From: Populus alba
Lineage: Eukaryota; Streptophyta; Magnoliopsida; Malpighiales; Salicaceae
Length of the DNA: 64,000 nt
Assembly (NCBI RefSeq): GCF_005239225.2
Contig: NC_133292.1
Location: forward strand, 11,619,965 to 11,683,964
Reading direction: 5' to 3'
The notes beneath the pieces were generated by a model that saw nothing but the letters and a program-made list of their open reading frames with translations, searched no databases and was not told the origin of the DNA. Made by a program: the position numbers and the translations under genes. Position 1 is the stretch's first letter; every line of letters begins with the position of its first letter. Below are positions 45,939 to 46,323 of this stretch, piece by piece.

Positions 45939-46004
45939 AACCCTAGCAAGTAGCAAAAATTCTGAGTCATTAGAAACCCAAAAGGCCTGCCGTTAAGCAC
46001 CATT
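45939..46004. repeat. 66-bp direct repeat, left copy
   Basis: Starts AACCCTAGCAAG and ends AAGCACCATT. It is identical to 46258-46323 except for one A/T difference (CAAGTAGC here, CAAGTTGC there). The two copies flank the plastid-derived segment exactly. Confidence 0.95.
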
Positions 46005-46257
46005 CGTTCTGTAGTGGATCTCTTACAAGATCAATTCGGATTGGCTCTAATTTGTTTAGAAAATGTGGTTAGAGGAACTATATGTGGAGCAATTAGGCAT
46101 AAATTGATACCGACTTTTCAAAATTTGGCAACTTCAACTCTATTAACAATCACTTACAAAAAATTTTTTGGATTACACTCCTTATCTCAAGTTTTGAATC
46201 GAAGGAATTGACACAAATAGTTCATGGGAGAAAATCGAGTTATTTGGGCTCTGGAGG
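46005..46257 (+). pseudogene. rpoB: Plastid rpoB fragment inserted in nuclear DNA (NUPT)
   Basis: About 253 bp that read as the internal part of the plastid RNA polymerase beta subunit: RSVVDLLQDQFGLAL, LENVVRGTICGAIRHKLIPT, FFGLHSLSQVL and, after a small deletion that shifts frame near 46200, LTQIVHGRK and YLGSGG. There is no start, no upstream or downstream part of rpoB, and a TGA interrupts it. From memory of the conserved plastid protein, the replaced residues (Ala to Val, Arg to Cys, Pro to Leu/Phe/Ser, Thr to Ile, Glu to Lys) can nearly all be explained by C-to-T or G-to-A changes, the usual decay of methylated plastid DNA in the nucleus. It has no function as a polymerase. Confidence 0.9.
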
Positions 46258-46323
46258 AACCCTAGCAAGTTGCAAAAATTCTGAGTCATTAGAAACCCAA
46301 AAGGCCTGCCGTTAAGCACCATT
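46258..46323. repeat. 66-bp direct repeat, right copy
   Basis: Second copy of the repeat at 45939-46004, beginning at the last base of plastid similarity and returning to unrelated local sequence (TTGCTGGAAAC) afterwards. Confidence 0.95.

What the first reader, a model, noticed from the sequence alone, without database searches (positions are those of the whole stretch)
45939..46323. Plastid rpoB insert bracketed exactly by a 66-bp host duplication
A 253-bp piece of plastid rpoB lies precisely between two 66-bp direct repeats of local sequence. Transposon target duplications are far shorter. A duplication of this size around organelle filler DNA is what repair of a break with widely separated nicks on the two strands would leave: both long overhangs filled in and a plastid fragment captured. 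A three-base ATT is shared by the left repeat end and the expected plastid sequence, suggesting microhomology joining. This is a clean footprint of how organelle DNA enters the nucleus.
Basis: partly seen in the sequence, partly recalled or inferred. Interest (0 to 1): 0.75.

Follow-up and report, generated by a model that had tools for sequence, protein, structure and literature searches.

The report
Plastid DNA inside a 66-base duplication
A plant chromosome carries a 253-base scrap of chloroplast gene placed exactly between two copies of a 66-base stretch of local DNA, most likely the scar of a widely staggered chromosome break patched with chloroplast DNA: a clean but single example of a known kind of repair.

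Summary
Two 66-base direct repeats (45939-46004, 46258-46323; 65 of 66 identical) bracket 253 bases that translate, with one frame break, to plastid RpoB residues 314-400. Other rpoB scraps in the assembly make the left joint most likely a 3-base microhomology (ATT); at the right at most one base is shared, so the duplication is about 62-66 bases. A paralogous region on another contig lacks the insert and weakly reads like a one-copy empty site. Best explanation: one event, a break with nicks about 62-66 bases apart on opposite strands, both overhangs made double-stranded, a plastid fragment captured between them. Paired-nick duplications and organelle filler are both known; this length is unusual (primate mitochondrial insertions: 1-11 bases). 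Template switching would leave the same sequence. One tension: the insert has 11 C-to-T-type changes at 98 inferred C/G sites, the repeats none at 56; other changes do not differ. Methylation of plastid inserts is the ordinary account; capture of an already decayed nuclear copy is the novel one. No relative's empty allele could be obtained.

The parts
45939..46004 (+). left copy of the duplicated host sequence (66 nt; the last 3, ATT, shared with plastid rpoB)
46005..46257 (+). plastid rpoB fragment, sense orientation, codons for about residues 314-400, one net 4-base deletion near 46203-46207
46258..46323 (+). right copy of the duplicated host sequence (65 of 66 identical; its first A may be plastid)
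46002..46004 (+). ATT microhomology at the left joint (Ile314 codon; the preceding base is T in the plastid-derived scrap L006, C in the host repeat)
45137..45546 (+). neighbouring gene: 60S acidic ribosomal protein (P2-like by my reading), exon boundaries not fixed; the insert lies about 0.4 kb downstream of its last exon
   Evidence: Pfam PF00428 in the ORF 45137-45484; short last exon read by eye

Best explanation
One repair event made both features. Nicks on opposite strands about 62-66 bases apart became a double-strand break with long single-stranded overhangs. DNA synthesis turned both overhangs double-stranded, so each broken end carried a full copy of the interval, and a 253-base plastid rpoB fragment was joined between them, with an ATT microhomology on the left and 0-1 base on the right. 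Afterwards the plastid piece decayed, mostly by C-to-T-type changes. Shown: structure, rpoB origin, shared bases at the joints, absence of the insert from the C4 paralogue. Inferred: nick geometry, fill-in, the one-step order, overhang polarity (not decidable here), methylation as cause of the decay.
For: Exact bracketing by a 65/66 repeat. Left joint: ATT shared, with host C and scrap-L006 T before it. Right joint: the solved chains continue Gly-Gly-Leu, so at most one base is shared. C4 paralogue L023: the flank with the P2-like gene is 76% alike, there is no blastn match to the insert, and the joined one-copy sequence aligns to L023:3386-3664 with 0 of 300 (right copy used) or 1 of 300 (left copy used) dinucleotide shuffles as good. 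Substitutions other than C/G-to-T/A: 5 of 253 in the insert versus 1 of 132 copy-sites in the repeats, p 0.67, as one age would give. Papers (passages): paired nicks giving 46-nt overhangs yield tandem duplications in mouse ES cells (PMC5730883); CST and Pol alpha-primase act in duplication formation at 3' overhangs (PMC8355091); primate numts with flanking target duplications were read as overhangs of natural breaks (PMC2567098).
Against: All substitutions together: 16 of 253 in the insert versus 1 of 132 in the repeats, p 0.009 (0.04 without the three in one codon); at the insert's rate the repeats should differ at about 8 sites (probability of 1 or fewer, 0.002). The excess lies in C/G-to-T/A: 11 of 98 versus 0 of 56, p 0.0076. 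So the insert looks older unless it mutated faster. The length far exceeds the 1-11 nt seen for primate numts. Left flank plus repeat does not align significantly to the paralogue (102 of 300 shuffles as good), nor does the 66-mer alone (70 and 31 of 300) or the right flank alone (33 of 300). Single case, no relative's allele.
Confidence: 0.65

Rival explanations
1. Template switching during repair synthesis (MMBIR or polymerase-theta-like): the left end annealed by ATT to plastid DNA, copied 253 bases, then switched back to a point 66 bases upstream of its own break and copied onward. No paired nicks are needed.
For: Gives the same final sequence; the ATT and possible 1-base microhomologies suit it.
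Against: Needs two switches, the second landing close by with at most one base of homology; paired-nick fill-in gives the duplication with fewer assumptions. No call separates the two.
Confidence: 0.17
2. Relay capture: the filler was copied from an older, already decayed nuclear plastid insert, not from plastid DNA, so the duplication is young and the insert's mutations are inherited. It concerns the source of the filler and is compatible with a staggered break.
For: C/G-to-T/A changes 11 of 98 in the insert versus 0 of 56 in the repeats. In the duplicated segment holding L002 and L003 the rpoB part differs at 2 of 161 sites and the flank at 102 of 7221 (p 1.0), so an old insert need not mutate faster than its flank.
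Against: No donor seen: of 8 other rpoB places listed in the assembly, 7 were compared; none shares more than 4 of the insert's changes, and the 4 rows that cover the 4-base deletion lack it. Other substitution types show no excess.
Confidence: 0.12
3. Two steps: a tandem 66-base duplication existed first and plastid DNA later entered exactly at its junction.
For: Bare tandem duplications of like size occur in this window.
Against: Requires a second break exactly at the junction. Nothing done here tests it directly.
Confidence: 0.06

Closest known systems
Target-sequence duplications at primate numts (Hazkani-Covo and Covo 2008, PMC2567098; passages)
   Same: Organelle DNA captured in a break, flanked by a duplication of host sequence, with microhomology at some joints; read there as fill-in of staggered breaks.
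   Different: There 17 of 71 events, duplications of 1-11 nt; here about 62-66 nt, and plastid DNA in a plant.
Tandem duplications from paired nicks (Vaughn and Bennetzen 2014 and Schiml 2016: originals not held, known from citations and passages in other papers; Schimmel 2017, PMC5730883, passages)
   Same: Direct duplication of the interval between two nicks on opposite strands.
   Different: In the passages seen the copies are simple tandem duplications; here 253 bases of plastid filler separate them.
Ordinary nuclear plastid DNA (NUPT; review PMC7037861 passages; PMC6376042 passages)
   Same: Plastid origin, end joining with 1-7 bp microhomology, C/G-to-T/A-biased decay.
   Different: The passages seen mention no long host duplication around an insert.
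Daphnia new introns (PMC4202315, passages) and horse telomeric-repeat insertions (PMC7215372, passages)
   Same: Insertions bracketed by direct repeats ascribed to staggered breaks.
   Different: Daphnia exon-neointron repeats are 4-12 bp; the lengths of direct duplications at horse loci were not in the passages seen.

Membership tests
Nuclear plastid DNA (NUPT) | Sequence derived from the plastid genome | tested here: met
   Best matches of the translation are RpoB chains that I recall as plant plastid; 18 of 25 database matches bear plant names. No plastome DNA was available for comparison
Nuclear plastid DNA (NUPT) | Lies in nuclear DNA between nuclear genes | tested here: met
   On a 13.2-Mb contig beside a 60S acidic ribosomal protein gene
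Nuclear plastid DNA (NUPT) | C/G-to-T/A-biased decay | tested here: met
   11 of 16 inferred substitutions, against an inferred, not sequenced, plastid ancestor
Staggered-break duplication with filler | Direct repeat of otherwise single-copy host sequence abutting both ends of the filler | tested here: met
   no third copy listed (these searches score only the best candidates)
Staggered-break duplication with filler | Empty site with one copy in a relative | tested here: inconclusive
   Only an old paralogue was available; weak one-copy alignment
Staggered-break duplication with filler | Microhomology or blunt joints | tested here: met
   ATT on the left, 0-1 base on the right
Transposon insertion | Short target duplication and element termini | tested here: not met
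   About 62-66 nt duplication; the filler is an internal coding fragment of rpoB; neither of the two inverted repeats listed in 45600-46700 joins the filler's ends

The most novel reading that the evidence does not exclude
The filler was copied from an older nuclear plastid insert, so organelle DNA can hop from one nuclear break to another; the decay of such an insert would then overstate how long ago it entered its present site.
Probability: 0.12. Interest if true: 0.5.

Novelty: new member of a known kind. Interest (0 to 1): 0.36.

Why it matters
It is a compact natural record of a break whose nicks appear to have lain some 62-66 bases apart, with organelle DNA as the patch. If a survey showed many such cases, flanking duplications would measure natural overhang lengths in plants, as was done for primates. 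The contrast between a decayed insert and near-identical repeats also offers an internal clock that separates insertion age from insert-specific mutation.

Tried and rejected
Transposon: rejected by duplication length and by the filler being internal rpoB. RNA intermediate with C-to-U editing: considered because many changes are C-to-T; rejected because they break conserved residues and because, as I recall, editing restores such residues; no call tested it. Plastid DNA for reference was sought in plasmids with the element's DNA, and in viral contigs and genome contigs with the translated fragment: no match. The plastid ancestor was therefore inferred from 7 other rpoB scraps of the same assembly plus solved RpoB proteins; 15 of the 16 changed sites have at least one scrap with the inferred base, and 46250 rests on protein alone. 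Unseen synonymous changes would make 16 an undercount. The ninth match (C5) was not compared. Some shared states lie at what I judge uncertain alignment edges (L004b 46053 and 46161, L008 46129). C-to-T versus G-to-A strand bias: 9 of 46 versus 2 of 52, p 0.022; with codon positions 1 and 2 only, 8 of 39 versus 2 of 38, p 0.087: not relied on. A survey of other plastid genes in this genome for long flanking duplications was planned and never answered (PF00223; PF00016). The right-flank search of the genome did not complete; the right flank was compared with the C4 region only.

Full report
Observation. The window holds two direct repeats of 66 bases, 45939-46004 and 46258-46323, differing at one base (offset 13, A versus T), with 253 bases between them. 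A 41-base pattern from the repeat, with up to 3 mismatches, occurs at these two places only in the window, and the 100 shuffles gave no match. In the whole assembly, searches with the entire element and with the left flank plus left copy listed no third copy of the 66-mer; these searches score only the best candidates.

Identity of the insert. Translation from 46002 gives 69 residues that match five RpoB chains at E 5e-30 to 2e-26 and two others only at 0.06. With the broken stretch replaced by X the match covers residues 314-400. That the five chains are plant plastid polymerases is recalled; the tables give molecule names only. A protein search returned 25 matches: 18 bear plant names (one marked chloroplast), one bears a Burkholderia name, six have none. 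The insert is in sense orientation and has a net 4-base deletion near 46203-46207 relative to the other nuclear scraps and to the protein.

Joints. Ile314 is the same in the five chains. Scrap L006 reads through this point with ATT preceded by T, while the host repeat has C before ATT. The left microhomology is therefore most likely exactly ATT; since L006 is itself decayed, one base more or less is not excluded. On the right the chains continue Gly-Gly-Leu. The insert ends in the GG of the second Gly codon, the next base could be the shared A, and the one after that is C or T for Leu but A in the host. At most one base is shared, and the duplication is about 62-66 bases.

The genome. The window is C9:11619965-11683964 of an unnamed 416-Mb assembly of 96 contigs.

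Empty site. The left flank has a paralogue on C4, 77% alike over 45000-45706. The fetched region L023 matches window 44753-45706 at 76% and matches again from 47037 on, with a few smaller collinear matches between. No blastn match to the insert was found in L023. The sequence with one 66-base copy and no insert aligns to L023:3386-3664: score 31.9 with the right copy (0 of 300 query shuffles, 0 of 100 target shuffles, 0 of 44 other genomic stretches as good) and 30.2 with the left copy (1 of 300, 1 of 100, 0 of 44). Repeat plus right flank scores 29.5 (1 of 300). Left flank plus repeat is not significant (102 of 300), nor are the 66-mer alone (70 of 300 left copy, 31 of 300 right copy) and the right flank alone (33 of 300). 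The stretch was tested after one search had already shown the match. So the paralogue lacks the insert and weakly supports one ancestral copy.

Decay. Sixteen substitutions specific to the insert were inferred: 9 C-to-T, 2 G-to-A, 2 T-to-C and 3 transversions in one codon. Of 13 amino-acid differences from the best chain, two (46050, 46235) were not counted because another scrap shows the same base there. All substitutions: 16 of 253 in the insert versus 1 of 132 in the two repeats, p 0.009. C/G-to-T/A changes: 11 of 98 versus 0 of 56, p 0.0076. All other changes: 5 of 253 versus 1 of 132, p 0.67. A survey of 17 plants that lists Populus trichocarpa reports the same C/G-to-T/A bias in plastid inserts, weakening with age, and links it to methylation (PMC6376042, passages). 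Against a pure methylation reading, 5 of 7 inferred CpG sites survive, and in the old duplicated segment holding L002 and L003 the rpoB part differs no more than its flank (2 of 161 versus 102 of 7221).

Donor test. Of 8 other rpoB places listed, 7 were compared. Shared derived bases: L002 0 of 13 covered, L003 1 of 13, L004a 2 of 15, L004b 4 of 14, L006 0 of 9, L007 0 of 2, L008 2 of 10. None looks like a donor, but one could be missing from the assembly, missed by the search, or lost.

Mechanism. The structure is what a break with nicks 62-66 bases apart would leave once both overhangs are made double-stranded and a plastid fragment is joined between them. Paired-nick breaks with 46-nt overhangs give tandem duplications in mouse ES cells through classical end joining (PMC5730883, passages); CST and Pol alpha-primase act in this at 3' overhangs (PMC8355091, passages). 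Schiml 2016 in plants and Vaughn and Bennetzen 2014 in rice are known to me here only through other papers' passages and citations and recall, since neither was held. Primate numts show target duplications of 1-11 nt in 17 of 71 events (PMC2567098, passages), so this case is about six times that maximum. Template switching would leave the same sequence and cannot be told apart here. The window also holds two bare tandem duplications of like size, 95 and 49 bases.

Novelty. Nine paper searches and passages of 14 papers showed no plastid insert bracketed by a host duplication this long. The library lacks most subscription journals and I saw passages, not whole papers, so this is weak evidence of absence. 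Verdict: a clean single member of a known kind.

Noticed in passing
60954-61143: Tandem duplication of 95 bases, 99% identical, without filler: a bare, little-diverged duplication in the same window.
   Followed up: no
55181-55278: Tandem duplication of 49 bases, 84% identical.
   Followed up: no
L004:1119-2595: Old rpoB scraps on C4 occur twice about 0.9 kb apart, with a neighbouring 270-base stretch repeated at 86%: a decayed plastid insert in a locally duplicated stretch.
   Followed up: partly
L024 and L025 (C9 about 4.29 and 4.39 Mb): A 7.4-kb segment duplicated about 100 kb apart, 98% alike, carries an rpoB scrap in each copy.
   Followed up: partly
46580-46768: Open stretch of 63 codons without a Pfam match at E 0.01, just downstream of the element; the piece 46560-46800 aligns to the C4 paralogue better than any of 60 shuffles.
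   Followed up: partly
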